Assembly: GCF_000421105.1 (NCBI RefSeq)
Contig: NZ_ATWF01000001.1
Span: 1,623,407 to 1,687,406 of the forward strand
Origin: Limisalsivibrio acetivorans
GTDB lineage: Bacteria > Chrysiogenota > Deferribacteres > Deferribacterales > Geovibrionaceae
Direction: 5' to 3'
Length of the DNA: 64,000 nucleotides
In this document: positions 7,903-23,618 of the stretch, in pieces
Numbering within the stretch: the stretch's first letter is position 1
Layout: each line of letters begins with the position of its first letter
Position numbers and translations under genes: made by a program
Notes under the pieces: model-generated
Told to the model about the DNA's origin: nothing
Databases searched by the model: none
What the model saw: the letters and a program-made list of their open reading frames with translations, nothing else

Positions 7903-7976
7903 GGCGGTGTAGCTCAGGTGGTTAGAGCATACGGCTCATATCCGTAGTGTCCGGGGTTCAAGTCCCTGCACCGCCA
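7903..7976 (+). tRNA. tRNA-Met (anticodon CAT)
   Basis: A complete 74-nt cloverleaf. The acceptor stem GGCGGTG (7903-7909) pairs perfectly with CACCGCC (7969-7975), with discriminator A at 7976. The anticodon stem TACGG/CCGTA holds loop CTCATAT with CAT at 7937-7939, and the T arm is GGGGTTCAAGTCCC. CCA is not encoded. CAT could also be an isoleucine tRNA with lysidine, but the stems resemble elongator tRNA-Met. Its 3' end is the insertion site of the island and remains intact. Confidence 0.93.
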
Positions 7977-8103
7977 TATAATAACAGGCCAGGGGCTTCC
8001 AGAGAAATCTGCGAAGCCCTTTTTAATTGGACGTTCCAGAAGATGAGCTGTCCGAAGACATCCACCACGATTCACTCAAATCCACACTCCCTTGACGGTA
8101 TAA
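7966..8103 (+). repeat. Left attachment-site repeat (attL) of the island
   Basis: 138 bp repeated directly at 21240-21377 with four mismatches and no gaps. It starts with the last 11 bases of the tRNA (CTGCACCGCCA), spans the tRNA terminator and ends at the first GACGGTATA motif. It is the left boundary of the island. The length is far more than a crossover core, so the element probably carries a copy of the tRNA downstream region. Confidence 0.9.
7993..8024 (+). terminator. Terminator after tRNA-Met (inside the att repeat)
   Basis: GGGCTTC (7993-7999) pairs with GAAGCCC (8013-8019), followed by a T-run. The same hairpin is duplicated in the right repeat at 21267-21298. Confidence 0.8.
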
Positions 8104-8216: not shown

Positions 8217-9407
8217 ATGCCCTTAACTGATACCGCCATCAAGAAAGCAAAGTTTGATCCAGCAAAGAAAAAAACCACAATCTCAGATGAAAAGGGTATG
8301 TACCTTCAGGTAATGGAGAACGGATCAAAGTATTTCAGGCTGGATTATCGATTCGCAGGTAAACGAAAAACCTTAGCTTTAGGAGTATATCCCCAGACCA
8401 CACTCAAGGAAGCCAGAGAAAAGCGAGATCAAGCTAAGAAGCAGATAAGTGAAGGCATCGACCCAGTACAATACAAAAAGTTTCTTAAAAAAACGTCCCT
8501 GGAAGAAACAGAGAACAGCTTTGAAGCTGTTGCTGCCGAATGGTACTCAAAGTACAAACCGAAATGGAGTACAGACCATGCCTCGAAAAAGTGGCGTAGG
8601 CTCGAACTTTATGTATTGCCTTATATTGGGAAAATGCCAATTAAGCAAATCACATCCAAAGACCTGCTGGAGGTTCTCAGAAATATTGAAAAGAGAGGAA
8701 TTACAGAAACAGCACATAGAACAAAGAGTGTGTGCAGCGAAGTTTTTAGATACGCAATCGCAACTGACCGCACAGAGAATGATCCAAGTGTAGCCTTAAA
8801 AGGGGCTTTATCTCCAAAGAGTCCTAAAAACATGGCAACAATCACTAGGCCCACAGATGTAGGAGAGCTATTAAGAGCAATCAGTGGATACCAGGGAAGC
8901 TATACTGTACATTGTGCCTTAAAACTTACTCCCTATGTATTTCTCAGGCCTGGTGAGCTAAGGCAAGGGGAGTGGTCTGAAATTGACCTTGAGAATGCAG
9001 TATGGAAAATCCCCGCAGAAAAAATGAAGATGAACAGGCCTCATATAATACCGCTCTCACGCCAAGCAATAGAAATACTAAAAGGCCTGTATCCTGTCAC
9101 TTCTCAATGGAGATACATATTTCCATCCCAAAGAAGCAAAGAGAGGCCAATGAGTAATGCCACTATCACTGCTGCATTAAGGCGATTGGACTACAGTAAA
9201 GAAGAAATGTCCGCACATGGTTTTCGAGCTATGGCTTCTACCCTACTTCATGAAAACGGATGGCGGTCAGATATTATTGAGATGCAGCTTGCTCACGCAG
9301 AAAGGAATAAGGTTAAAGCTGCATATAATTACGCCCAACACCTCGATGAAAGGGCCCGAATGATGCAATGGTGGGCGGATTATCTGGATAAACTGAAAGG
9401 AGTCTGA
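8217..9407 (+). CDS. int: P4-type tyrosine recombinase (island integrase)
   Basis: A 396-residue site-specific recombinase that would integrate and excise the island at tRNA-Met. The N-terminus (MPLTDTAIKKAKF, then GMYLQVMENGSKYFRLDYR) is the arm-type DNA-binding DUF4102 domain of P4-like integrases. A core-binding domain follows (about 95-190). The catalytic domain has Arg in FLRPGELR near 244, the HxxR box in SAHGFRA near 332, a second His in QLAHAERN and the tyrosine nucleophile in AAYNYAQHL near 370. Length is normal and all catalytic residues are present, so it is probably functional. The ATG directly follows a GACGGTA-type motif and GAGGTG. Confidence 0.95.
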   Translation: MPLTDTAIKKAKFDPAKKKTTISDEKGMYLQVMENGSKYFRLDYRFAGKRKTLALGVYPQTTLKEAREKRDQAKKQISEGIDPVQYKKFLKKTSLEETENSFEAVAAEWYSKYKPKWSTDHASKKWRRLELYVLPYIGKMPIKQITSKDLLEVLRNIEKRGITETAHRTKSVCSEVFRYAIATDRTENDPSVALKGALSPKSPKNMATITRPTDVGELLRAISGYQGSYTVHCALKLTPYVFLRPGELRQGEWSEIDLENAVWKIPAEKMKMNRPHIIPLSRQAIEILKGLYPVTSQWRYIFPSQRSKERPMSNATITAALRRLDYSKEEMSAHGFRAMASTLLHENGWRSDIIEMQLAHAERNKVKAAYNYAQHLDERARMMQWWADYLDKLKGV

Positions 9408-9408
9408 T

Positions 9409-9942
9409 TCAATTTATTTCATTCAAGCGCTTTAAAATTCGTGAAACAGTTTTCGCATTCCACAGCATATTACGCCGAGTAAGAATGCCCATTTTGTTGA
9501 GCTCCTCAGCAATCTTGTATTTTGTTGTACAGCCAGAACTCATAAGCTCATATATATAAGGTTTGATAGATATTGCAAATTCATCAGCTTTGGTCTTTCT
9601 CTGAGTATTGGCCTTTACAGTAGTATTTGTAGAATAGTCATCTCTAGGCAGATAAAGTTGTTCCTTTACACAGTAAGAGGCGAACTCGCTTATAACTCGA
9701 AGTTTACCCACCTCAACATTCTCAAAATATCCTATACAAAGGCACACCAGTTCACCAAGCTTACAGCTCATCTTACCCTTTGCTGACTTGTTCTGACATT
9801 TCGCAAAGCCCTTATAATAATTGAAATACTTCATGATGCCATAACCAAGTTCATCTTCTAATACACTTTCAGCATTTTCTCTCTGGTCGTTCAGCCTTAT
9901 CAAATATCTTCTTTCAATACACACATAGATTGTTTTCGACAT
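9409..9942 (-). CDS. Hypothetical protein with recombinase-like C-terminal helix-turn-helix
   Basis: A protein of about 177 residues, convergent with int (1 bp between the two stops). The N-terminal half is not recognised. The C-terminal part, around KYKIAEELNKMGILTRRN followed by WNAKTVSRILKRL, resembles the small helix-turn-helix that serine recombinases use to bind DNA, but no resolvase catalytic domain is present. It may be an accessory DNA-binding protein of the island. The ATG at 9942 is preferred over an in-frame TTG at 9948. Confidence 0.6.
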   Translation of the reverse strand: MSKTIYVCIERRYLIRLNDQRENAESVLEDELGYGIMKYFNYYKGFAKCQNKSAKGKMSCKLGELVCLCIGYFENVEVGKLRVISEFASYCVKEQLYLPRDDYSTNTTVKANTQRKTKADEFAISIKPYIYELMSSGCTTKYKIAEELNKMGILTRRNMLWNAKTVSRILKRLNEIN

Positions 9943-10105
9943 AATCAATTATATTACACTTACTATCGAAATGCCAAAATATCATAAAAGTAAATATATA
10001 CAACATATGATAGCTAATAAGGATAACTTTCGGTGGAAGTAAATATGAGATGTCCAGAAGAGATAAAACTCTTTGCTATCATTTAATAATACTAAAGGAG
10101 AGTAT

Positions 10106-10761: not shown

Positions 10762-11508
10762 ATGAAAGACATATTTGATATCAGAAATGTTGATTATTAT
10801 GAAAGAAACATTGAGTTGATGAAGAAAGACAGTTGCTTAGGCTATAAACACAAAAGTGAACTTCAGGCAATCACACAAGAGCTGGCAATAATAAGAACTC
10901 ACATTCAGAATAACCCAGATATAGAGATGAACGATGAAACCAAAACAAAAGCAGATAACTTCATATATAATTACAACATATTAATGGAGAGATATAAAAA
11001 TAGTAAAGGACTAAATGAGCTACTGCGCAATTCGAATATTGCTTACTTTATAACTATCACTCAAAGCAAAAACAATGATTGCCATTCAAACAGAAGTGTT
11101 GCGATGTTCATTAAAAACATAAACCTATTGCTGAAGAAGGTGAATCAACGATTTTACTGCAATAGATTCAGAAAGAAACCTGATAGTCACCTAAAGGGCT
11201 TTGCTATATATGAAAATAATTCAGCAAAGACACAACCTCATTACCACTTGCTAATAAACGATGATCCGAAACTGAATTTGCCGGACTTAAAGAAAAACTT
11301 TGAAGAAGCTTGCAGGGAGTACAATGCATATAAAAACCAGATATTGTTCAACTATGAAAAAGGGATTGATATACAAAGAGTTGACGGAGATGAAAGGCTC
11401 TATGACTACCTAACAAAACAAGACATACAAGGTCAAAACATAACCTTTCTCAATAAATACGGGATATCCGACATATCAGCTTATGACGGGATAATAAGAG
11501 TTGCTTGA
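10762..11508 (+). CDS. HUH-endonuclease Rep/relaxase-like protein
   Basis: A 248-residue protein with the three motifs of rolling-circle Rep proteins in order. Motif I-like YFITIT is near residue 94, the metal-binding HUH motif is in QPHYHLLIND near 159, and the tyrosine motif with a lysine four residues on is in ERLYDYLTKQ near 213. HUH enzymes nick one strand and stay linked through the tyrosine, starting replication or transfer. The single tyrosine is typical of small-plasmid and satellite Reps. AAGGAG precedes the ATG. In the island it may copy or mobilise the excised circle, probably at the hairpin cluster upstream. Confidence 0.72.
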   Translation: MKDIFDIRNVDYYERNIELMKKDSCLGYKHKSELQAITQELAIIRTHIQNNPDIEMNDETKTKADNFIYNYNILMERYKNSKGLNELLRNSNIAYFITITQSKNNDCHSNRSVAMFIKNINLLLKKVNQRFYCNRFRKKPDSHLKGFAIYENNSAKTQPHYHLLINDDPKLNLPDLKKNFEEACREYNAYKNQILFNYEKGIDIQRVDGDERLYDYLTKQDIQGQNITFLNKYGISDISAYDGIIRVA

Positions 11509-11890
11509 GTGAACTGGACTAGACTAAGGGGCAGTTACAATAACTCCTGAGGAGTATGCTGAAAGAGTGGAAAACTCAAAATATATGCTGTAAGAAAAGA
11601 GGACTCTTACAAGGGCTATGTATAGTTTACTCATCTCTCACCTAGGGGCTGTCTCAATTCGTCGGTCCACTATACAAAAAGAATCAAGTTTTATGATCTG
11701 CTTATAAACAACGATACTTTTCATTTATATAAAACAAGTATGACATAATAAAATATCTTAAACGCAACTTATACATAACTGATGTCATTTACAAATAACA
11801 AGATATCAGATATAATTAACAATGTGTTAGAGTAATCGTTAAAGGAAAGCTTACTATGAAAACATAGATTATCTTTTCTGGGAGGATCAG
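11509..11890. other. Non-coding leader of the defence-like operon
   Basis: 382 bp without a convincing gene. It contains a short hairpin ACTCC-TGA-GGAGT near 11541-11553 and GTAAGA/TCTTAC near 11589-11610, then AT-rich DNA that probably holds the promoter of the helicase operon. No clear sigma-70 pair was assigned. Confidence 0.4.
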
Positions 11891-14746
11891 GTGTCAACAG
11901 GCTATCATGCAAAATATATTGCTCACAAGCTAACTTCACAAAACTCAAGTGATGATTTTTCAAAGCTTTCAATGTCACTTTTTGATGCCACTGTTGACCT
12001 TAACCCACACCAGATAGAAGCTTCGCTCTTTGCTCTTAATAATCCTTTGTCAAAGGGAGTAATCTTAGCTGATGAGGTTGGCTTAGGTAAAACTATTGAG
12101 GCAGGACTTGTTTTATGTCAGTTCTGGAGCGAAAGAAAGCGAGATATTATTGTAATCTGCCCAGCCTCATTAAGAAAACAGTGGGCAAACGAGTTATATG
12201 AGAAATTCAGTATACCAAGCATAATTATCGACTCTAAGAAATATAAAGAGTTAAAAAAAGAGGGTTCAGAAAACCCATTTAAACAAAAACATGTCATAAT
12301 CACTTCTTTTCATTTTGCAGCTAGATTGAGAGATGAGCTAAAACTTGTATCATGGGACCTGGCAGTAATAGATGAAGCACACAAGCTAAGAAATGCACAC
12401 CAGCAAAGCAATTTTATGGGACAATCATTAAGATGGGCACTTGAAGATGTTTATAAGATTCTTTTGACAGCCACCCCGCTGCAAAACTCACTCATGGAAC
12501 TATACGGCCTTTCCACTCTAATAGATGACAACCTTTTTGGAGAACCTGCATCGTTCCGTTCTATGTACATGAACTATGGGGCTGATATTGAAGATCTGAG
12601 GAACAGGCTAAGCCAATTTTGCAAAAGAACATTGAGGCGTCAGGTTTTAGAATATATAAAATATACAGAAAGAAGAGCACTTACCCAACCTTTCAACCCC
12701 ACAACCGAAGAGCATAAATTATATGACGCAATATCTGAATTTCTATTACGTGAAGATACATACGCAATACCTACAAACCAGCGACACCTGGTTGTCCTTA
12801 TACTTAGAAAATTGCTGGCCTCATCATCTGCAGCAATAGCATCAACTCTGGAAACCATAAAAAACAGGCTTATCAGCATAAAAGAAGGTGTGAAGGATAA
12901 CCGGGATCTGGTGGACAGGATAATTGATGAAGAGGAGATTGAAGATGATTTTCTGGAAGAAGACATAGAGGTTACAGAAACCTCTGACAATGAGAACAAA
13001 ATTGATTTAAAAAAGCTAGAAGCAGAAATACTTGAGCTCGACCAATATATAAGATGGGCAAAGAGCATAGGTATAGATTCAAAAACCAGGGCTTTGATGA
13101 GTGCCTTAAAGGTTGGTTTTGCAGAGATGCAAAAAATGGGGGCAGCAAAAAAGGCAGTCATTTTTACCGAGTCCCGAAAAACTCAGGACTATCTGGCTAA
13201 TTTCCTCGAAAGCAATGGATATTACGGCAAAGTTGTCTTATTTAACGGCAGTAATAACTCTGAAAATACAAAACAGATTTACAATGACTGGCTGACAAAA
13301 AATTTAGATAGCGGGAAATCAACAAGTTCGAAAGCTATAGACATTCGAGCAGCTTTAATTGATTATTTCGAAGACGAAGGTGAAATTTTTATAGCAACAG
13401 AAGCAGCGGCAGAAGGCGTAAACCTGCAGTTTTGCTCGCTGGTTATCAACTATGACTTACCATGGAACCCCCAGAGAGTAGAGCAAAGAATCGGAAGATG
13501 TCACCGTTACGGCCAAAAGCATGATGTTGTTGTTATCAATTTTATTAACAAAAGAAATGCCGCTGATATGAGGATATATGAACTTCTGGAGCAAAAGTTT
13601 AATCTTTTTAACGGAGTTTTCGGAGCTTCTGATGAAGTGCTCGGCTCTATAGAATCAGGAGTCGATTTTGAAAAACGGGTTTTAAAAATATATCAGGAAT
13701 GCCGCACAGAAAAAGAAATTGAAAAAGCTTTCAATCAGCTGCAGCAGGAAATGGATGAGCAGATAAAGTCCCGTATGACTGATGTGAAAGAACAGCTGTT
13801 CGAACATTTTGACGAAGATGTTCATTCACGTCTCAAATTCAGACTGGAAGACACAAAAAGACAGCTGAGAAGGTTTGAGAAAGATTTCTGGACTTTAACA
13901 AGATTTATTCTATCAGATAAGGCCAAGTTCAATGATACTGAGTGCAGCTTCAGCCTTAAAGATTCACCCGCCCCTCATATTAAAACCGGAAACTACCATA
14001 TGGTATCAAAAGACCATGTAAATATTCATGGAGACTATCTCTATCGTCTATCACACCCGTTGGGAGAATACGTTCTGGATTGCGGAAAGCAGTATCCTGT
14101 GGAAACAGCTTCCGTTGAGTTTGACATATCTAATCATCCGAACAAAATAAGTATTGTGGAAGGCTTAAAAGGAAAAAGCGGCTGTATGATGCTGGAAAAG
14201 CTCGTAATCTCTGGACTTTCGTCAGAAGAATATCTTTTGTTCTCTGCCATTGATGACAGCGGCAAAAGCATAGATCAGGAAGTTTGTGAAAAACTTTTTT
14301 ACTGCAGTGGCAAAGTGGCAAGCACACAAAACATTGATACTGAGCAGGCAGAAAGACTTAAAAAAGAGTCGGATGTTCATTCAAAAGCGACTATTTATGC
14401 ATCTGCAGAGAGAGATAATGAGTTTTTTAAACACGAACAGGAAAAACTGACAAAATGGGCAGAAGATATGATCACATCTCTTGAGAGTGAGCTTGCCGCA
14501 GCAAAATCTCAGGAAAAAGCGATACGAAGAGAATTGGACCTTGCAACAACAGTGGAAGAGCAGGTTGAACTGCAAAAAAAGCTTAAAGCGAAAGAAAGAG
14601 AAAAGAAAAGACTTCGTCAGGAGATATTTGACAGAGAAGACGAGATAGAAAACAAAAGAGACATACTTATAGAAGCCTTAAAGAAGAAGCTTTCACAAAA
14701 GACTACACAGGAGACGCTGTTTATTATACGATGGAGCGTTGTCTAA
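11891..14746 (+). CDS. SNF2/RapA-type helicase of a modification-restriction operon
   Basis: A 951-residue superfamily 2 ATPase. Walker A is in ADEVGLGKTIEAG near residue 60, Walker B is IDEAHKLRN near 160, motif III is LLTATPLQN near 190, and motif VI is QRIGRCHRYGQ near 528. This set matches the SNF2/RapA group of double-strand DNA translocases. The C-terminal roughly 80 residues (860-935) form a strongly charged coiled coil. Start: GTG at 11891 with GGAGG 9 bp upstream. It is the first gene of an operon; the methyltransferase gene starts 15 bp after its stop. In DISARM class 1 an SNF2 helicase (DrmD) also accompanies a methylase, but DrmA, DrmB and DrmC are absent here. Likely role: DNA translocation in anti-phage restriction (inference). 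Confidence 0.88.
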   Translation: MSTGYHAKYIAHKLTSQNSSDDFSKLSMSLFDATVDLNPHQIEASLFALNNPLSKGVILADEVGLGKTIEAGLVLCQFWSERKRDIIVICPASLRKQWANELYEKFSIPSIIIDSKKYKELKKEGSENPFKQKHVIITSFHFAARLRDELKLVSWDLAVIDEAHKLRNAHQQSNFMGQSLRWALEDVYKILLTATPLQNSLMELYGLSTLIDDNLFGEPASFRSMYMNYGADIEDLRNRLSQFCKRTLRRQVLEYIKYTERRALTQPFNPTTEEHKLYDAISEFLLREDTYAIPTNQRHLVVLILRKLLASSSAAIASTLETIKNRLISIKEGVKDNRDLVDRIIDEEEIEDDFLEEDIEVTETSDNENKIDLKKLEAEILELDQYIRWAKSIGIDSKTRALMSALKVGFAEMQKMGAAKKAVIFTESRKTQDYLANFLESNGYYGKVVLFNGSNNSENTKQIYNDWLTKNLDSGKSTSSKAIDIRAALIDYFEDEGEIFIATEAAAEGVNLQFCSLVINYDLPWNPQRVEQRIGRCHRYGQKHDVVVINFINKRNAADMRIYELLEQKFNLFNGVFGASDEVLGSIESGVDFEKRVLKIYQECRTEKEIEKAFNQLQQEMDEQIKSRMTDVKEQLFEHFDEDVHSRLKFRLEDTKRQLRRFEKDFWTLTRFILSDKAKFNDTECSFSLKDSPAPHIKTGNYHMVSKDHVNIHGDYLYRLSHPLGEYVLDCGKQYPVETASVEFDISNHPNKISIVEGLKGKSGCMMLEKLVISGLSSEEYLLFSAIDDSGKSIDQEVCEKLFYCSGKVASTQNIDTEQAERLKKESDVHSKATIYASAERDNEFFKHEQEKLTKWAEDMITSLESELAAAKSQEKAIRRELDLATTVEEQVELQKKLKAKEREKKRLRQEIFDREDEIENKRDILIEALKKKLSQKTTQETLFIIRWSVV

Positions 14747-14761
14747 TTTCGAGGGTTAAAA

Positions 14762-17533
14762 ATGTCAGAAAACAAATATTACGAAAAGCTTAAAAAGAAT
14801 CTAAAAGAGATGTTCCAGATGGACAGAAACGATCTGGACTTCGGCATATACAGAATAATGAACCAGAAGTCTGCAGAGATAGAAGACTTTCTGGAGAACA
14901 AACTTTTAACACAGGTTAAAGAAGATCTGGAGAAAACAAAATCTAAAACAGGTAAAGAAGAGCTTGAAAAAGCGATAAAAGACGCCGAGAGCTTAGGGAT
15001 AGACCCTAACACTAACGAAAAAATTATCGCTTTGAAAGAAAAGTATGACTCTTTAGCAGACATAAATAAGGTTCAAAGCGAAATTTTTAGTCATCTTAAT
15101 AACTTCTTTGCCTGTTATTACTCAGAAGGCGATTTTATGTCACACCGCCGTTACAAGCCGGGAAAATACGCCATCCCATACGAAGGCGAAGAGGTAAAGC
15201 TTCATTGGGCAAACAGTGATCAGTACTATATTAAGTCATCCGAGGATTTAAAAGACTATACGTTTATTGCAAGCGGCAAGAGAGTTCATTTCAAGCTGAT
15301 AAACGCATCTACAGAAAAAGATAATGTAAAAGAAGCTTCCGATAAAAAGAGAATGTTTGTTCTTTGCGAGGATGAGCCTTTTATATTTGAAAATGATGAA
15401 CTTTTTATAAGATTTGAATACAAAGCACCGGAATCCGAAAAAAAACAGGAAAACCTAAATAAGGATGCTGTTTCTGTTTTATTAAATTCAGCAGATTTGG
15501 GTGAATGGCGAAACATCTTATCTGAACCAAGACCAACTGACAAAAACAAAGAAAGAACACTTCTCGAGAAACATCTTAATGACTACACTGCCAAACATAA
15601 GTTTGACTACTTTATACACAAAGACCTAGGCGGTTTTCTGCGTCGAGAGCTGGATTTTTATATCAAAAACGAAATAATGCATCTGGATGATATCGAAAAC
15701 GAATCTGCTGCTAAGGTCGAGGAATATCTTGATAAGATAAAAGTGATAAGAAAGATAGCAGGAAAAATAATCGACTTTCTTGAGCAGCTTGAAAATTTTC
15801 AGAAAAAAATCTGGTTGAAAAAGAAGTTTGTTGTCGAAACAAACTGGTGCATCACACTGGACAGGATTCCGGAAAGTTTTTACGAGGAGATTGCCGAGAA
15901 TGATAAACAAATTGAAGAATGGGTTGACCTTTTTTCAATAGATAAAATTGAATTAAGCACAGAGTCACCCGCTTTTGAAAAACCATTGCCTGTTGAATTT
16001 TTAAAAGCGAACGAGTTCCTTGTTCTGGACACAAAGTTTTTCAGCGAAGATTTCAAAAACAGGCTACTCGAAACTTTTGATGATATAGATGAGCAGACAG
16101 ACGGATTACTGATACATTCAGAGAATTTTCAGGCACTGCAGCTTTTGCAGGAAAGATACAAAGAGCAAGTAAAATGTATATATATTGACCCACCGTATAA
16201 TACCGGTGGAGATGGTTTTTTATATAAGGATAGCTATAAACACTCCAGCTGGTATTCCATGATAAAAGATCGCTTAAAAATATCAGGACACCTGATGTCA
16301 AATACTGCCTCAATATATACACAAATAGATTACTATGAAACACACAGGCTTAGAGAAATTCTAGACACTCTATTTTTTTTCCAAAGGGAAATAATTTGGG
16401 ATATTCAGGTTCTTTCAGGTTTTAAAACAATTGCGCCAAACTGGGTTCGAGGGCATGAAACAATTTATTTTCATACTAAAACTGAAGATTATTTTTTCAA
16501 AAAGCTTAAACAACCTCACACAAAAGAATATGAAGCAATGTTTAACAAGCTTGATACAGATGGTAGAAAATTCATGATAGCCCACGGATTAAAGAGATAT
16601 TGGGACGAAGTTAAAGATAGAGGGAAACCGTTCGGTGATGTATGGAATGACATAATGTCTTTTCAACAGCAGCCAACAGCTTCCGAAAGAATCGGATTTT
16701 CAACTCAAAAACCAGAAAAGCTTCTTGAAAGAATAATTTTATCATCTACTAAAAAAGGTGAGATTGTTATCGACTTTTTTGCTGGGAGTGGAACAACTTC
16801 AGTGACCGCTTGTAAGCTTAGTAGATATTTTATAAATATTGAAGTTGGTAGTTACTTTTACAGCTTCATGCTACCAAGGATGAAAAAGACATTAAATGGC
16901 TTCACTACTTCTTCTTCGAAAGTATATAACTATAAAGGTGGCGGGATCTTCAAATACATACGTTTGGAATCATATGAAGATGCTTTAGATAACCTTACGC
17001 CAGTGAGAACTGAAGAACAAAACAATGCTTTCGAGCAGATGAGTGACACTGCAAAAGAAGAATATATACTGAAATATATGCTTGATGTTGAGACAAAAGA
17101 TAACGAATCGATGCTTAACGTTAAAACATTCACAAAACCTTTTGATTATAAAATAAATATCAGAGTTGATGATGAACTTGTGCCTACTAAAGTTAATCTG
17201 GTTGAAACGTTTAATTATCTGATAGGCCTCAAGGTTGAAAACTTCAGAAGTAATTACAGTGGGTATGAAGGTCTAAAGACTGTTGAAGGTAGAAACCTTA
17301 AGGATGAAAAGATAATTATTATCTGGCGTGACATTGAACTTATTGATAATAACAAGCTTGATGAGTGGTTTAAAAAACAGCAGTTTTCAGCAAAAGAACA
17401 GGAATATGATTATTTCTATGTAAACGGCGACAACAATATTGAGAATTGGCGCAAAGACAATGAGACATGGAAAGTACGTCTGATTGATCATGAATTTCCT
17501 AAGCTTATGTTTGATGTAAAAGATGTGATGTAG
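14762..17533 (+). CDS. Type III-like (beta-class) DNA adenine methyltransferase, long form
   Basis: A 923-residue DNA amino-methyltransferase. The catalytic motif DPPYNTG is near residue 475 and the SAM-binding motif FAGSGTT near 673. This order (motif IV before motif I) marks the beta class, to which type III Mod subunits belong; DPPY favours N6-adenine. The roughly 200 residues between the motifs would be the target-recognition region. About 450 residues precede the catalytic core, so it is about 280 residues longer than EcoP-type Mod; this extension is rich in coiled-coil-like charged helices. Spacing to neighbours is 15 bp upstream and 8 bp downstream. It probably marks self DNA for the neighbouring helicase-nuclease. 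Confidence 0.9.
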   Translation: MSENKYYEKLKKNLKEMFQMDRNDLDFGIYRIMNQKSAEIEDFLENKLLTQVKEDLEKTKSKTGKEELEKAIKDAESLGIDPNTNEKIIALKEKYDSLADINKVQSEIFSHLNNFFACYYSEGDFMSHRRYKPGKYAIPYEGEEVKLHWANSDQYYIKSSEDLKDYTFIASGKRVHFKLINASTEKDNVKEASDKKRMFVLCEDEPFIFENDELFIRFEYKAPESEKKQENLNKDAVSVLLNSADLGEWRNILSEPRPTDKNKERTLLEKHLNDYTAKHKFDYFIHKDLGGFLRRELDFYIKNEIMHLDDIENESAAKVEEYLDKIKVIRKIAGKIIDFLEQLENFQKKIWLKKKFVVETNWCITLDRIPESFYEEIAENDKQIEEWVDLFSIDKIELSTESPAFEKPLPVEFLKANEFLVLDTKFFSEDFKNRLLETFDDIDEQTDGLLIHSENFQALQLLQERYKEQVKCIYIDPPYNTGGDGFLYKDSYKHSSWYSMIKDRLKISGHLMSNTASIYTQIDYYETHRLREILDTLFFFQREIIWDIQVLSGFKTIAPNWVRGHETIYFHTKTEDYFFKKLKQPHTKEYEAMFNKLDTDGRKFMIAHGLKRYWDEVKDRGKPFGDVWNDIMSFQQQPTASERIGFSTQKPEKLLERIILSSTKKGEIVIDFFAGSGTTSVTACKLSRYFINIEVGSYFYSFMLPRMKKTLNGFTTSSSKVYNYKGGGIFKYIRLESYEDALDNLTPVRTEEQNNAFEQMSDTAKEEYILKYMLDVETKDNESMLNVKTFTKPFDYKINIRVDDELVPTKVNLVETFNYLIGLKVENFRSNYSGYEGLKTVEGRNLKDEKIIIIWRDIELIDNNKLDEWFKKQQFSAKEQEYDYFYVNGDNNIENWRKDNETWKVRLIDHEFPKLMFDVKDVM

Positions 17534-17541
17534 GTTCTGTT

Positions 17542-20500
17542 ATGGCTAAAAGAAAAAAGAAAGAAGAACTGAAATTTTATCACAAGCTTGTTCTTAACCA
17601 ATATATTTGTTCTCTGTTTGAGACAGAAAAGAACGATGATGGTATTTATTCTTTTAAAATATTAGGTAAAGATTTTAAAGATGAAGGTATGGAAGGATGG
17701 GACAATGACGGTATTTCATATTTTTATCACAACCTTACATCCAGAACCAACGAAAGAGACAAATTGCCTGATGACAAGCTTAAAGAGTATGATAACAATA
17801 TATTCAGACATACTAAAAAGCTAAGCGATGCCAGAGGAGAGCAGGTTAAATGGAAATATTTTCAATATTTTACACTTCTCTTCGTAGAAATATATCTGGA
17901 TAGGTATTTTTCTGATAGAGAAAGTCTGCTTAAAGACCTTAATGACTTCCTTTATGATTTTAATATAGAATTCACTTCCAAAGGTTTGTTATCTCAACCT
18001 TTACCACTATACACTGAAGATGATCTGCATGTGCTTTCTGTATGGAATGCCACAGGGTCTGGCAAAACACTTTTGATGCATCTGAATATCTTTCAGCTTA
18101 AACATTACATAGAGAAAAGCGGTATAAGTAAACAGTATAACAAAACCATACTTCTTACACCTAATCCGGGACTATCTAAACAGCACCTTGAGGAGCTGGA
18201 AATATCCGGCATTGATGGTGATTTCTTCAATATTGATGGAACAGCTCAATACAATACAGATAATGTAGAGATTATCGATATTTATAAATTAAAAGATAGT
18301 TCAGGTAAAAATACAGTTGCAGTGAGTGCATTCAACAGTAACAACATTGTTTTTGTTGATGAAGGCCACAGAGGAGCATCCGGAACAGTTTGGAAAGATA
18401 TGAGAGATCAACTGAGCGAAGAAGGTTTTGCGTTTGAATATTCTGCAACTTTCGGACAAGCAGTAGGCAGCAATGCTAAGCTTTCAAAAGAGTATGCAAA
18501 GAATATTCTTTTCGACTACTCTTATAAATATTTTTATAACGACGGCTTCGGAAAAGATTATTCAATACTCAATCTCCCTGAAACAGAAAACAATGAGAAC
18601 TACCATAAATATATGACTGCAGGGCTGATTTCTTTCTATCAGCAGCTTAAATATTATGAGGATAATAAAGATAAGCTTGCAGTTTTTAATATTGAAAAAC
18701 CTCTTTGGGTTTTTATCGGAAGAACTGTTAAGTCGCTGACTAAAGACTTGAGCTCTGACGTTGAAAAAATTGTACTGTTTATTGATGAATTTATTAAAGA
18801 TGCCAAAAAGACAAAGGAGTATATATCACTCATTCTTGATGGCAAACTCGGCTTGCTGGATAAATTGGGTAGAGATATTTTTTCTAATAAGTTTACATAC
18901 CTAATGAATCTGAAAATGTCTGCAGATGATATTTTTAATGATCTTAATAAGGTTTTGTTTAATTCAAGCTCCGGTGCTCAATTGCATGTTGATTACCTGA
19001 AAGGGAGCGAAGGTGAGCTTGCTTTGCGAGTGGGAGACAATGAACCTTTTGGAGTTATTAACGTTGGCGAATCAAAAAAGCTTGCTGACCTTTTAAGTAA
19101 AAATGTTGATGTTTTTGAGAAGGATTTTTCAGACTCGCTGTTTGAAGGGATAAATGATAGAGGCTCAACAATAAATCTGCTGATCGGTTCTAAAAAATTC
19201 AGCGAAGGGTGGAACAGTTGGCGAGTATCAACTATGGGGCTGCTAAATGTCGGCAAAAGCGAAGGCAGCGAGATAATACAGCTATTTGGTCGTGGAGTAA
19301 GGCTTAAGGGGCATGAGATGAGCCTAAAACGCTCAAAAGAGCTTGTTGGCATCGATAGACCTGATTTCATAAATATTGCCGAAACATTAAATATTTTCGG
19401 TGTAAAAGCAGATTATATGGAAACATTCAAAAAGTATCTAGAAGAAGAAGGTCTTCCTGTAAAAGATAATGTTTTTGAGATAGATATACCTGTCAGAAAT
19501 ACACTCGGAGATAAAAAGCTCAGAATACCAAAAATACCAAGCGGCTTACATTTCAAAACCAATGCACCAAAACCTACATTAAGGCTCGATCCAACATTGT
19601 TTTATGGAAGACCTGTAGAGGTGAACATGTATGCCCAGCTTCAGTCCATTCACTCAAAAGGTGCAGCATATATCGGAGACGGAATAAGGCATAATGAAGA
19701 AAGTTTTAAAGAAATGCACCTCGCTTTTATGGACTTTGAGCAAATATATAATGAACTGCAGATGTTTAAAAATGAAAGAGCTTGGTTCAACCTTAATATG
19801 CCCCGAGAAGCTGTCAGAGAGATATTAAACTTAGACAAATGGTACATTATAAAGATACCAAAGGATCAGATGAAGTTTTCCAGCTTTGAACAAGTTAAGC
19901 TTTGGGAAGAAATTGCTGTTAAACTTTTGAAAAAATATATTGAAAGGTTCTATAATCGCTATAAGTCAGGATGGGAAAACGAGCATAGAAGAATAGAAGT
20001 TCTTGATGGGAATGATAGCAACTTTATTGTTGAATATTCAGTTCTTATGGATTCAAGCATGACTTCGTTGAAAGCAAAGCTGGATGATATTGTCAGCTCT
20101 ATAGATAATAATAAGTTTGATGATATCGTATTCAGCGATAAAATACATGCATTTATGTTTGACTGGCATCTATACCAGCCGCTTATGTATTTAAAAGATA
20201 ATAATGTAAAAATAGTTCCTCAAAGCCTTGTTGAAAGTGAGAAAACTTTTGTAAGCGACTTAAAAGAATATTGTGAAAACGCTGAAGATAAAAGAGAGAT
20301 ATATCTTCTCAGAAACCTGACTAAGAGCAAAGGAATTGGATTCAATATTGATACCGGCACTTTTTTTCCTGATTTTATTTTATGGATTGTCGATGGAGAA
20401 ACCCAGCATATAAAATTCATTGATCCTAAAGGATTAAGAAACTTGTCGGGGATTAATGACCCTAAAATAAGGTTTTGCAAAGATATTAAGCTTCTGGAGA

Positions 20501-20664
20501 ACAAACTGGGAGATAAATCAACAACATTAGATTCTTATATAGTCGTTCCAACAAAAGAATATGATTTACCTGAATGGGCGCAGAACGAAAAAGAACTAGA
20601 GGAAAATAATATACTTAAACAAAATACAACCGGGTATGTTGAGAAGATATTATCGAAAATATAG
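17542..20664 (+). CDS. Type III-like restriction helicase-nuclease (Res-like)
   Basis: A 1040-residue protein. Walker A lies in NATGSGKTLLMH near residue 170 and Walker B reads VDEGHRGASG near 273 (DEGH instead of DEAH). A late helicase motif appears as IIQLFGRGVRLKG. The C-terminus holds a PD-(D/E)xK-type nuclease: FFPDF near 942 and IDPKG near 961 supply the expected Asp and Asp-x-Lys. Length and architecture match type III Res subunits, which translocate on DNA and cut unmodified sites. It starts 8 bp after the methyltransferase gene, so Mod and Res should be made together. Confidence 0.88.
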   Translation: MAKRKKKEELKFYHKLVLNQYICSLFETEKNDDGIYSFKILGKDFKDEGMEGWDNDGISYFYHNLTSRTNERDKLPDDKLKEYDNNIFRHTKKLSDARGEQVKWKYFQYFTLLFVEIYLDRYFSDRESLLKDLNDFLYDFNIEFTSKGLLSQPLPLYTEDDLHVLSVWNATGSGKTLLMHLNIFQLKHYIEKSGISKQYNKTILLTPNPGLSKQHLEELEISGIDGDFFNIDGTAQYNTDNVEIIDIYKLKDSSGKNTVAVSAFNSNNIVFVDEGHRGASGTVWKDMRDQLSEEGFAFEYSATFGQAVGSNAKLSKEYAKNILFDYSYKYFYNDGFGKDYSILNLPETENNENYHKYMTAGLISFYQQLKYYEDNKDKLAVFNIEKPLWVFIGRTVKSLTKDLSSDVEKIVLFIDEFIKDAKKTKEYISLILDGKLGLLDKLGRDIFSNKFTYLMNLKMSADDIFNDLNKVLFNSSSGAQLHVDYLKGSEGELALRVGDNEPFGVINVGESKKLADLLSKNVDVFEKDFSDSLFEGINDRGSTINLLIGSKKFSEGWNSWRVSTMGLLNVGKSEGSEIIQLFGRGVRLKGHEMSLKRSKELVGIDRPDFINIAETLNIFGVKADYMETFKKYLEEEGLPVKDNVFEIDIPVRNTLGDKKLRIPKIPSGLHFKTNAPKPTLRLDPTLFYGRPVEVNMYAQLQSIHSKGAAYIGDGIRHNEESFKEMHLAFMDFEQIYNELQMFKNERAWFNLNMPREAVREILNLDKWYIIKIPKDQMKFSSFEQVKLWEEIAVKLLKKYIERFYNRYKSGWENEHRRIEVLDGNDSNFIVEYSVLMDSSMTSLKAKLDDIVSSIDNNKFDDIVFSDKIHAFMFDWHLYQPLMYLKDNNVKIVPQSLVESEKTFVSDLKEYCENAEDKREIYLLRNLTKSKGIGFNIDTGTFFPDFILWIVDGETQHIKFIDPKGLRNLSGINDPKIRFCKDIKLLENKLGDKSTTLDSYIVVPTKEYDLPEWAQNEKELEENNILKQNTTGYVEKILSKI

Positions 20665-20676
20665 GTATAAGTCAAA

Positions 20677-20862
20677 ATGACATATTACCTAACTTCACAG
20701 TATAGGAATAAATTATTAAGAAGTAATTTGATGTCACTTAAAATTGGCTGGATTGATTTTACTAGCAAAGATAGAGCAAATGTTGATAAGGTACTTGACA
20801 ATGTTTATGAAAAAAATGTTTTGGATGAACTTGGAGTCGGAGCTTTAGATAAGGTAGTATAA
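20677..20862 (+). pseudogene. Truncated DUF6361-like gene (fourth gene of the operon)
   Basis: A 61-codon frame starting 12 bp after the Res-like stop. The segment SLKIGWIDFTSKDRANVDKV, followed by a stretch ending in LDELGVGAL, resembles the N-terminus of the DUF6361 family as I recall it; those proteins are about 400 residues long and often sit with defence helicases. The frame ends LDKVV at a stop inside a 124-bp repeat that begins at 20848, exactly where similarity to the family would be lost. I read it as a 3'-truncated remnant; a genuine small protein cannot be excluded. Confidence 0.55.
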
Positions 20863-20971
20863 ATTTCGCAAATTGAGTCTGTCTGCTTTAGACACTTACA
20901 AGGCCAGTACCATTTTGGTAGTAACCTTTATCCTAAATAACTGCCCCGGTTTTCTCCAGATCTATTATCTA
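20848..20971 (+). repeat. 124-bp repeat, copy A
   Basis: This copy is gap-free with copy B at 22265-22388, with about 15 mismatches (near 88% identity). It starts GATAAGGTAGTATAA and ends CCAGATCTATTATCTA. It truncates the DUF6361-like frame and is not related to the att repeat. It may be the edge of an older inserted or deleted element. Confidence 0.75.
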
Positions 20972-21239
20972 TAACGCATTGACGCCTCTTTACAAACTAG
21001 CTTTGAGATAGGTGTCCATGGGCAGTTGTACCGCCCTGATCATTCACGATAACGACCATACCGATCAATTCTTGCGCTGACCACCCTAACACTTTGTTTT
21101 TATTATGTAATATGATATTATTAATTAGATATAGGTTACCCTAGCGGAAGCCTTTTGACGGTATATTTTACGGTATATCTGTTCTTATATCAAAACCAAC
21201 ATCATAAATAACAAATACTTACACGCCAGGTTTTATTGT
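20972..21239. other. Non-coding right end of the island
   Basis: No supported gene. It holds two GACGGTATA-like motifs (21157-21165 exact, and TACGGTATA at about 21169-21177), matching the array beside the integrase. These are candidate right-arm recombination sites. Confidence 0.45.
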
Positions 21240-21377
21240 CTGCACCGCCATACAATAACAGGCCAGGGGCTTCCAGAGAAATCTGCGAAGCCCTTTTTAA
21301 TTGCACGTTCCAGAAGATGAGCTGTCCGAAGACATCCACCACGATCCACTCAAATCCACGCTCCCTTGACGGTATAA
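21240..21377 (+). repeat. Right attachment-site repeat (attR) of the island
   Basis: Direct copy of 7966-8103 with 134 of 138 positions identical. It begins CTGCACCGCCA, contains a second copy of the tRNA terminator hairpin (GGGCTTC 21267-21273, GAAGCCC 21287-21293) and ends in GACGGTATAA. Only the last 11 bases of the tRNA are present, so no second tRNA is made. Confidence 0.9.
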
Positions 21378-21990: not shown

Positions 21991-22264
21991 GAGCACAGTC
22001 ATTTTACCAATTTTAATGAATTATCGTACTATTCAGTATCTTCATTCAGTATAGAGATATACTCAATATAAGCATATTTTTTATGCCTTTCCTTACCGAG
22101 TCTGGAATAAAAGTGTGTAAACGTCGTGTATGCTAAACTACAATACTATATATACACCATTGTCTTCATGGACGGAATGGTTTTAATGATGTGTGCCGGC
22201 GGTGTCGTTAGCAACGTAACGATATACATTCTGAAAAGGAATATCAGTGACTATGGCTGCTACT
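21991..22264. other. Intergenic stretch with a doubtful short frame
   Basis: No supported gene. A short frame from ATG near 22168, about 33 codons starting MDGMVLMMCAGG, ends just before repeat copy B; it has no ribosome-binding site and is probably a relic. Confidence 0.3.
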
Positions 22265-22388
22265 GATAAGGTAGTATAATTTTCGCAAATTGAGTCTGTT
22301 GGCTTTAGACACGGACAAGGACGTTCCCATTTTGGTAGTGACCTTCAACCTAAATCATTGCTCCGGTTTTCTCCAGATCTATTATCTA
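22265..22388 (+). repeat. 124-bp repeat, copy B
   Basis: Same length as copy A at 20848-20971 with about 15 substitutions and no gaps. The two copies bracket attR and the gene at 21574, about 1.4 kb apart. It ends 13 bp before the frame at 22402. Confidence 0.75.
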
Positions 22389-22401
22389 AAATGATAAGGG
22401 C

Positions 22402-23180: not shown

Positions 23181-23618
23181 TCACTCTACGGAACGAACAC
23201 AACGCACATCGATATGACCCAACTTTAAGTAGTCGTAACTTTTGCCGTGGTTGAAGTCCACTGACCATGCAAGATAACTATTACCGGCATCCGTAGTGGA
23301 CGACCAATAGAGCAAAGAACGAACATTCTGAAATGTATTATCAATTGCAGGGTCATATGTTGACCTGTCTGCAATTGAAAGAAGCTCTCTCATATTAGGC
23401 AGCCGCCAGTCGTTGTACCCGCCGAGAGTTAAAGCTTCGCAGTAGTCTATAGCTTCCTGCCATTGTTTTGTGAATGAAGCAGCATCAGAATCATCCTGCC
23501 ACATTAGATCGTTTCTGCTGTCAGTTACTGTTCCATTCGAACCGTTCCTTGTCAGCTCAGCAATCACTTGAGATGTCATTAAAAGCATCACGATCATAAC
23601 CAACTGGATCTTTTTCAT
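23181..23618 (-). CDS. Exported DUF1566 domain protein
   Basis: A 145-residue protein with a cleavable signal peptide (KKIQLVMIVMLLMTSQVIA) and one DUF1566 domain (Lcl-type C-terminal fold). The domain signature is LMWQDD, then YCEALTLGGYNDWRLPNMREL, LYWSSTT and a final VRCVRS. DUF1566 domains occur in secreted and surface proteins of many anaerobes; no enzymatic function is established. The same domain ends the large lipoprotein downstream on the same strand, so the two genes are related. A GGAGG ribosome-binding site precedes the ATG. Confidence 0.85.
   Translation of the reverse strand: MKKIQLVMIVMLLMTSQVIAELTRNGSNGTVTDSRNDLMWQDDSDAASFTKQWQEAIDYCEALTLGGYNDWRLPNMRELLSIADRSTYDPAIDNTFQNVRSLLYWSSTTDAGNSYLAWSVDFNHGKSYDYLKLGHIDVRCVRSVE

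What the first reader, a model, noticed from the sequence alone, without database searches (positions are those of the whole stretch)
11891..20862. SNF2 helicase + long type III-like methyltransferase + helicase-nuclease operon, with a truncated DUF6361-like fourth gene
Three large genes spaced by 15 and 8 bp combine parts of type III restriction (beta-class Mod with DPPY before FAGSGTT; Res with DEGH and PD-(D/E)xK) with a RapA-type translocase and a Mod about 280 residues longer than usual. It resembles DISARM class 1 only in having an SNF2 helicase beside a methylase; DrmA, DrmB and DrmC are not there. A fourth gene follows at 12 bp but stops after 61 codons at a repeat. I see this as a composite modification-restriction system that standard names do not cover well, and whose loss of gene four may have crippled or altered it.
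Basis: partly seen in the sequence, partly recalled or inferred. Interest (0 to 1): 0.82.

Follow-up and report, generated by a model that had tools for sequence, protein, structure and literature searches.

The report
Type III restriction operon with RapA-like motor
This is a complete, mobile-island-borne DNA restriction-modification operon of an already described Type III subgroup that carries an extra RapA-like DNA motor gene, here with a swapped-in target-recognition segment; the truncated fourth gene is a leftover of a different defence cassette.

Summary
Three intact, tightly spaced genes (SNF2 11891-14746, Mod 14762-17533, Res 17542-20664) are followed by a 61-codon fragment that ends in a repeat.

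The novelty claim does not hold. The trio matches, gene by gene and in order, the characterised Eco86II system of E. coli NCTC86 (SNF2 53% full length, Mod 43%/35%, Res 38% full length). Murray et al. 2021 described it as a third group of Type III R-M systems with a helicase-like ATPase 5' of mod. Across phyla, 44 of 53 related genomic loci keep SNF2-Mod-Res.

Gene four is not a missing subunit. It is the first ~40 residues of a DUF6361/ZacA protein, which elsewhere heads its own cassette (DUF6361-PLD-helicase), and no ZacA occurs at 127 related loci. The operon sits on a 13.3-kb tRNA-Met island (integrase, AlpA, Rep-like, 149-nt att repeats).

New details: (1) Mod is mosaic: residues ~541-660 derive from another Type III Mod lineage. 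(2) The SNF2 protein is modelled as RapA-like over its whole length. (3) Junctions of related operons carry other defence genes. (4) Some SNF2-less relatives have a UvrD-PD-(D/E)xK motor in the same slot. The SNF2 protein's role is unproven here and in the literature.

The parts
7955..8103 (+). attL: 149-nt direct repeat that begins in the 3' end of tRNA-Met (7903-7976)
   Evidence: 94% identical to 21229-21377; same-family genomes have only the tRNA-proximal part
8217..9407 (+). tyrosine integrase of the island
   Evidence: Pfam PF00589, PF13356, PF22022
10073..10318 (+). AlpA-type regulator
   Evidence: PF05930 E 5e-20
10762..11508 (+). replication-initiator-like protein
   Evidence: PF23343 REP_ORF2-G2P, E 3e-6, at the cut-off
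11788..11816 (+). promoter-like site TTTACA-17-TATAAT before the operon (consensus match only)
   Evidence: 11 of 12 matches; Shine-Dalgarno-like GGGAGG before GTG 11891
11891..14746 (+). SNF2/RapA-like dsDNA motor, 951 aa, all helicase motifs intact
   Evidence: (53% to the Eco86II-locus SNF2)
14762..17533 (+). Type III Mod (beta-class N6/N4 methyltransferase), 923 aa
   Evidence: PADLOC MTase_III PDLC03646 658 bits
16382..16741 (+). exchanged target-recognition segment of Mod (residues ~541-660)
   Evidence: 61% to a Mod of another Type III lineage (L194) against ~17-18% to Eco86II-type Mods
17542..20664 (+). Type III Res: SF2 helicase plus C-terminal PD-D-x-K nuclease, 1040 aa
   Evidence: PADLOC REase_III PDLC03654 689 bits
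20677..20862 (+). 5' remnant of a DUF6361/ZacA gene (not part of the R-M system)
   Evidence: PDLC03828 profile positions 1-39, E 9e-9; alignment
20848..20974 (+). 127-nt repeat that truncates the ZacA remnant; second copy 22265-22391
21229..21377 (+). attR of the island

Best explanation
The three genes form an intact Type III restriction-modification system of the Eco86II/BspHIV kind (Murray's group 3), carried by a 13.3-kb integrative island in tRNA-Met. Inferred from the family: Mod binds a short asymmetric sequence and methylates one strand of host DNA; Res, bound to a Mod dimer, uses ATP to switch into a sliding state and cuts unmodified DNA ~25 bp from the site when it meets a second, head-to-head complex. 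Shown here: Mod is mosaic; its target-recognition segment was exchanged with that of another Type III Mod lineage, so the site it reads probably differs from those of its close relatives. Shown here: the 5' gene encodes a RapA-like dsDNA motor that is inherited together with Mod and Res. Inferred, weakest step: the motor works alongside rather than inside the Mod-Res enzyme, for example by moving along DNA and displacing RNA polymerase or other roadblocks from incoming DNA so that Res complexes can slide and meet. Gene four is a leftover of a neighbouring ZacABC cassette and is irrelevant to function. The confidence given is for membership and R-M function; for the roadblock role of the motor alone it is about 0.35.
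For: Full-length, gene-by-gene homology and identical order to the Eco86II locus. Eco86II Mod and Res match the same PADLOC models that the window's proteins hit best. All catalytic motifs are intact. SNF2-Mod-Res order in 44/53 genomic and 10/14 viral-contig loci with enough upstream DNA. Distances of SNF2, Mod and Res correlate (Mantel r 0.64/0.79/0.85; 0 of 2000 permutations reach them). TRD mosaic. RapA is the only kind of solved structure listed that aligns over the whole SNF2 model (8t0l_F, Z 21.5, 738 residues, 4.2 A). Literature: Eco86II methylates GAGCC (m4C) and cuts ~25 bp away; the ATPase is not needed for methylation and was not detected in the cutting fraction (PMC8259958). Island.
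Against: No activity is shown for this operon. The SNF2 role rests on analogy with RapA, and the helicase core is generic to many motors. About a fifth of the related loci have Mod-Res without SNF2, so the motor is not strictly needed. The exchanged TRD could in principle have disabled Mod (motifs look intact). Correlated distances can also reflect shared host history. Res sequence is too far from EcoP15I Res for sequence searches, and the fold match (4zcf_C, Z 11.7) is no better than other SF2 helicases.
Confidence: 0.87

Rival explanations
1. A new composite defence system in which gene four (DUF6361) is an essential part, now crippled by truncation.
For: Gene four lies 12 bp after res on the same strand and is truncated at a repeat.
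Against: No DUF6361/ZacA in 127 related loci; DUF6361 heads a self-contained DUF6361-PLD-helicase cassette in Cronobacter, Halomarina and a distant bacterium without this R-M operon next to it; the Eco86II locus has no such gene and the system works (PMC8259958).
Confidence: 0.04
2. A DISARM class 1 variant or remnant (SNF2 = DrmD plus a methylase).
For: SNF2 best profile match is DrmD_b over residues 29-669.
Against: Scores 688.7 against the curated cut-off of 950; the SNF2 protein of the Eco86II locus gives the same kind of score; no DrmA/B/C genes among the island ORFs scanned; the methylase is a Type III Mod paired with Res.
Confidence: 0.03
3. Same operon, but the SNF2 protein is an independent defence or regulatory gene that merely travels with the R-M pair, like other embedded cargo.
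For: Eco86II methylates and cuts without detectable ATPase (PMC8259958); junctions of these operons take up unrelated genes (Fic, AAA, YhcG, RhuM); some loci lack SNF2.
Against: SNF2 occurs far more often than any other associated gene, in a fixed slot and order, co-diverging with Res (r 0.79); four SNF2-less loci have another motor, UvrD-PDDEXK, in the same slot.
Confidence: 0.3
4. The mosaic Mod makes m6A (TRD from a lineage resembling adenine methyltransferases) rather than the m4C of the tested group-3 systems.
For: The methyltransferase domain matches compact adenine enzymes over its length (PRK11524, MboIIA).
Against: Base specificity cannot be read from these motifs; the rest of Mod, motif IV region included, is Eco86II-like; the chemistry of the donor lineage is unknown.
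Confidence: 0.5

Closest known systems
Eco86II / BspHIV Type III R-M systems (group 3 of Murray et al. 2021, PMC8259958)
   Same: Same three genes in the same order, full-length homology of SNF2 (53%) and Res (38%), Mod homologous outside the TRD; same PADLOC Mod/Res models.
   Different: Mod TRD segment comes from another lineage and is ~85 residues shorter; methylated base and site unknown; on a tRNA-Met island in an unnamed bacterium.
EcoP15I-type Type III R-M
   Same: Beta-class Mod and helicase-nuclease Res in one operon; Mod hits EcoP15I Mod (E 1e-18).
   Different: Res has no significant sequence match to EcoP15I Res; Mod carries ~350 extra N-terminal residues; additional SNF2 gene.
RapA (bacterial Swi2/Snf2 RNA polymerase recycling factor)
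   Same: Best solved-structure match by sequence and the only kind listed that aligns over the full length of the model.
   Different: 18-20% identity; encoded in a restriction operon; no test of RNA polymerase binding.
DISARM class 1 (DrmD, DrmMI, DrmA, DrmB, DrmC)
   Same: SNF2 helicase related to DrmD beside a methylase.
   Different: No DrmA/B/C genes found; SNF2 below the DrmD cut-off; Type III Mod and Res.
ZacABC (PADLOC) / DUF6361 cassette
   Same: Gene four matches the first 39 positions of ZacA.
   Different: The remaining nine tenths of ZacA are gone, and ZacB and ZacC are not on the island.

Membership tests
Type III R-M | beta-class Mod (DPPY before FxGxG), PF01555 domain | tested here: met
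Type III R-M | Res with SF2 helicase motifs and C-terminal PD-(D/E)xK | tested here: met
   motifs invariant or nearly so in the alignments and present in the window; PDLC03654
Type III R-M | mod and res adjacent, same strand | tested here: met
   conserved in relatives
Type III R-M | Res related to EcoP15I Res | tested here: inconclusive
   no sequence hit; fold match 4zcf_C Z 11.7, 371 residues, tied with other SF2 enzymes
Type III R-M | one-strand methylation of an asymmetric site; ATP-dependent cutting ~25 bp away with head-to-head sites | not testable with these tools
   needs SMRT sequencing and digestion assays
Eco86II/BspHIV group 3 | SF2 helicase-like ATPase gene immediately 5' of mod, not homologous to Res and without a nuclease motif | tested here: met
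   SNF2 at 11891-14746, 15 bp before mod; hits only helicase/SNF2 families, no nuclease domain
Eco86II/BspHIV group 3 | homology of all three proteins to Eco86II | tested here: met
Eco86II/BspHIV group 3 | m4C modification | not testable with these tools
   the TRD is exchanged, so it cannot be assumed
DISARM class 1 | DrmA, DrmB, DrmC present | tested here: not met
   none of the 10 ORFs scanned between 8217 and 22824 matches DrmB or DrmC; the SNF2 protein's DrmA match is a weaker helicase-core match
DISARM class 1 | SNF2 protein passes the DrmD cut-off | tested here: not met
   688.7 bits against 950 (NF038318) and 279 against 610 (NF038317)
ZacABC / DUF6361 | complete ZacA with ZacB and ZacC | tested here: not met
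   only positions 1-39 of 396 of ZacA; own genome has no other ZacA match; no ZacB/ZacC match among the ORFs scanned

The most novel reading that the evidence does not exclude
These operons are a modular platform: a Type III Mod-Res enzyme plus a DNA motor slot 5' of mod that is needed in vivo, filled by a RapA-like motor in most lineages and by a UvrD-PD-(D/E)xK helicase-nuclease in others. Two junctions take up additional defence genes (Fic, PARIS-like AAA-TOPRIM, YhcG). The RapA-like motor strips RNA polymerase or other proteins off invading DNA so that Type III complexes can slide.
Probability: 0.25. Interest if true: 0.6.

Novelty: new member of a known kind. Interest (0 to 1): 0.33.

Why it matters
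The architecture is already known, so the finding mainly closes the question of what the operon is. It does sharpen an open one: Murray et al. left the function of the extra ATPase unknown although it accompanies hundreds of Type III systems. Showing that it is RapA-like along its whole length, co-diverges with Res, and is sometimes replaced in place by another motor turns this into a directly testable hypothesis. The TRD exchange between distant Type III lineages is a clear natural example of how such systems may acquire new specificities.

Tried and rejected
DISARM: SNF2 fails the DrmD cut-offs and the partners are missing.

Gene four as subunit: a ZacA profile finds nothing in 127 loci.

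EcoP15I Res by sequence or profile: no match. The structural match is not discriminating.

The truncating repeat: two copies in this genome, diverged partial copies in one relative, no plasmid match, no Rfam family; not identified.

Papers on DUF6361 or ZacABC: none found in the library. The only other paper found with the names Eco86II/BspHIV was an unrelated polymer paper.

BREX-related (BR) systems of PMC12839542 were considered because they too pair an N6-methyltransferase with a RapA-architecture helicase. The passages read mention no Type III Res, so they were not pursued.

Full report
What is there. The window holds an operon of three large, intact genes: SNF2 (11891-14746, GTG start after GGGAGG), Mod (14762-17533) and Res (17542-20664), with gaps of 15 and 8 bp, followed 12 bp on by a 61-codon ORF. 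A good promoter-like site lies at 11788-11816 (consensus match only).

Setting. The operon is carried by an island of about 13.3 kb between a 149-nt direct repeat, 94% identical, at 7955-8103 (starting in the 3' end of tRNA-Met 7903-7976) and 21229-21377. The island also encodes a tyrosine integrase, a recombinase fragment, AlpA and a replication-initiator-like protein. Its G+C is 34-40% against roughly 50% around it. Res is not found in the eleven same-family genomes searched. Same-family genomes match only the tRNA and, in some, the DNA just before or after it. This is an integrative element with a defence payload.

What the trio is. A literature search led to Murray et al. 2021 (PMC8259958). 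They describe Type III R-M systems of which two, Eco86II and BspHIV, have an additional SF2 helicase-like ATPase gene immediately 5' of mod, an arrangement they report in more than 500 genomes. I located the Eco86II locus in E. coli NCTC86 (NZ_LR217818.1): SNF2-related protein, methyltransferase and DEAD/DEAH protein, same order and strand. The window's proteins match it at 53% (SNF2, residues 2-951), 43% and 35% (Mod residues 7-547 and 661-917) and 38% (Res, whole length). The Eco86II proteins match full length the PADLOC models MTase_III PDLC03646 and REase_III PDLC03654 that the window's Mod and Res hit best. By sequence, the operon is therefore a member of a described and partly characterised Type III subgroup. 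Enzymatic features cannot be tested here.

Conservation. A scan of one genome per species with a Res alignment found 567 loci with relatives; 80 were kept. Of the 53 with at least 9 kb upstream of res, all have mod and 44 have SNF2 upstream on the same strand; the order is SNF2-Mod-Res. They come from Planctomycetota, Chloroflexota, Verrucomicrobia, Bacillota, several proteobacterial classes, Acidobacteria, Nitrospira and others, and Mod-Res pairs also occur on archaeal plasmids. Pairwise distances of the three proteins correlate over 59 loci plus Eco86II (Mantel r 0.64, 0.79, 0.85; none of 2000 permutations reaches these), so the trio is largely inherited as a unit. Shared host history may contribute to this.

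The fourth gene. The fragment matches positions 1-39 of PADLOC ZacA (E 9e-9), and an intact ZacA is DUF6361. Homology stops at the start of a 127-nt repeat at 20848, whose second copy lies at 22265-22391. Intact DUF6361 genes head a cassette of DUF6361, a PLD-like protein and a helicase: ZacABC in a distant bacterium, a Cronobacter plasmid and a haloarchaeal plasmid, none with this R-M operon beside it. A ZacA profile found no match in 127 loci with the R-M operon. The simplest reading is that a second defence cassette once followed this operon and was deleted, leaving its first codons. Its loss says nothing about the R-M system.

A mosaic Mod. In the full-length relatives the distance from DPPY to FAGSGT is 253-349 residues (Eco86II 284); in the window it is 197. 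Only one other related Mod, in a viral contig (L144), is similarly compact (185). Over residues 541-660 the window's Mod is 61% identical (73/119) to a 704-aa Mod of another Type III lineage (L194; PADLOC PDLC03633), but only 17-18% identical to Eco86II-type Mods (21/117 and 20/117). On both flanks the relation reverses: residues 361-540, 60% to a close Eco86II-type relative against 30% to L194; residues 691-900, 43% against 22%. This is the signature of an exchanged target-recognition segment, so the site read, and possibly the base methylated, cannot be taken from Eco86II.

The motor. AlphaFold2 on an alignment of 36 relatives gave a usable SNF2 model (pLDDT 78.7). Against solved structures the helicase core matches many Swi2/Snf2 enzymes; among the matches listed, only RapA aligns over the whole length (8t0l_F, Z 21.5, 738 residues, 4.2 A), in agreement with RapA leading the sequence search. 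Murray et al. found that the ATPase is not needed for methylation and was not detected in the cleavage-active fraction. I therefore infer an accessory role in vivo, such as clearing RNA polymerase or other roadblocks; this is a hypothesis. Two observations bear on it. In four loci without SNF2 (L034, L040, L113, L149) the slot 5' of mod holds a UvrD-type helicase with a PD-(D/E)xK domain, which suggests that the slot calls for a motor. On the other hand, about a third of the SNF2-Mod-Res operons carry other genes at a given junction (15 of 43 between Mod and Res, 13 of 43 between SNF2 and Mod), with Fic proteins, AAA ATPases of the HEC-01/AriA kind, YhcG nucleases and DUF4276 proteins the most frequent, so presence alone does not prove cooperation.

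Res. The model of Res (pLDDT 83.9) has an SF2 helicase core whose matches include EcoP15I Res (4zcf_C, Z 11.7, 371 residues), tied with many other helicases. Fold comparison is thus consistent with Type III Res but does not single it out; membership rests on homology to Eco86II.

Verdict. The parts worth keeping are the TRD exchange, the RapA-like whole-length architecture of an ATPase of unknown role, and the evidence for a replaceable motor slot and cargo junctions.

Noticed in passing
window 20848-20974 and 22265-22391: 127-nt direct repeat (87%) with only two copies in this genome; three diverged partial copies (77%) in related genome G003, where a 35-nt match to window 22106-22140 also recurs at least nine times at about 645-781 kb and 1541-1691 kb. 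Unidentified dispersed repeat.
   Followed up: partly
L034:4102-7008, L040:4253-7039, L113:3974-6691, L149:4088-6823: UvrD-helicase plus PD-(D/E)xK protein directly upstream of mod in Type III loci that lack the SNF2 gene: a possible replacement of the motor.
   Followed up: partly
L035:8224-10001 and other Mod-Res junctions: Embedded genes between Mod and Res or SNF2 and Mod: AAA plus DUF4276 (PARIS/HEC-01-like), Fic, YhcG (DUF1016), RhuM, GmrSD.
   Followed up: partly
window 9409-9948 (-): Fragment with the Recombinase (PF07508) region between the integrase and AlpA.
   Followed up: no
window 23181-23618 (-) and 23901-26897 (-): Two genes whose proteins share a similar C-terminal module (MWQDD...W..AIDYCEAL...WRLP), the larger with PKD-like repeats; their 3' ends share a 24-nt repeat.
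   Followed up: no
L144:2049-4838: Viral contig with a Mod of the same family and a similarly compact target-recognition segment (DPPF-FLGSGT spacing 185).
   Followed up: partly
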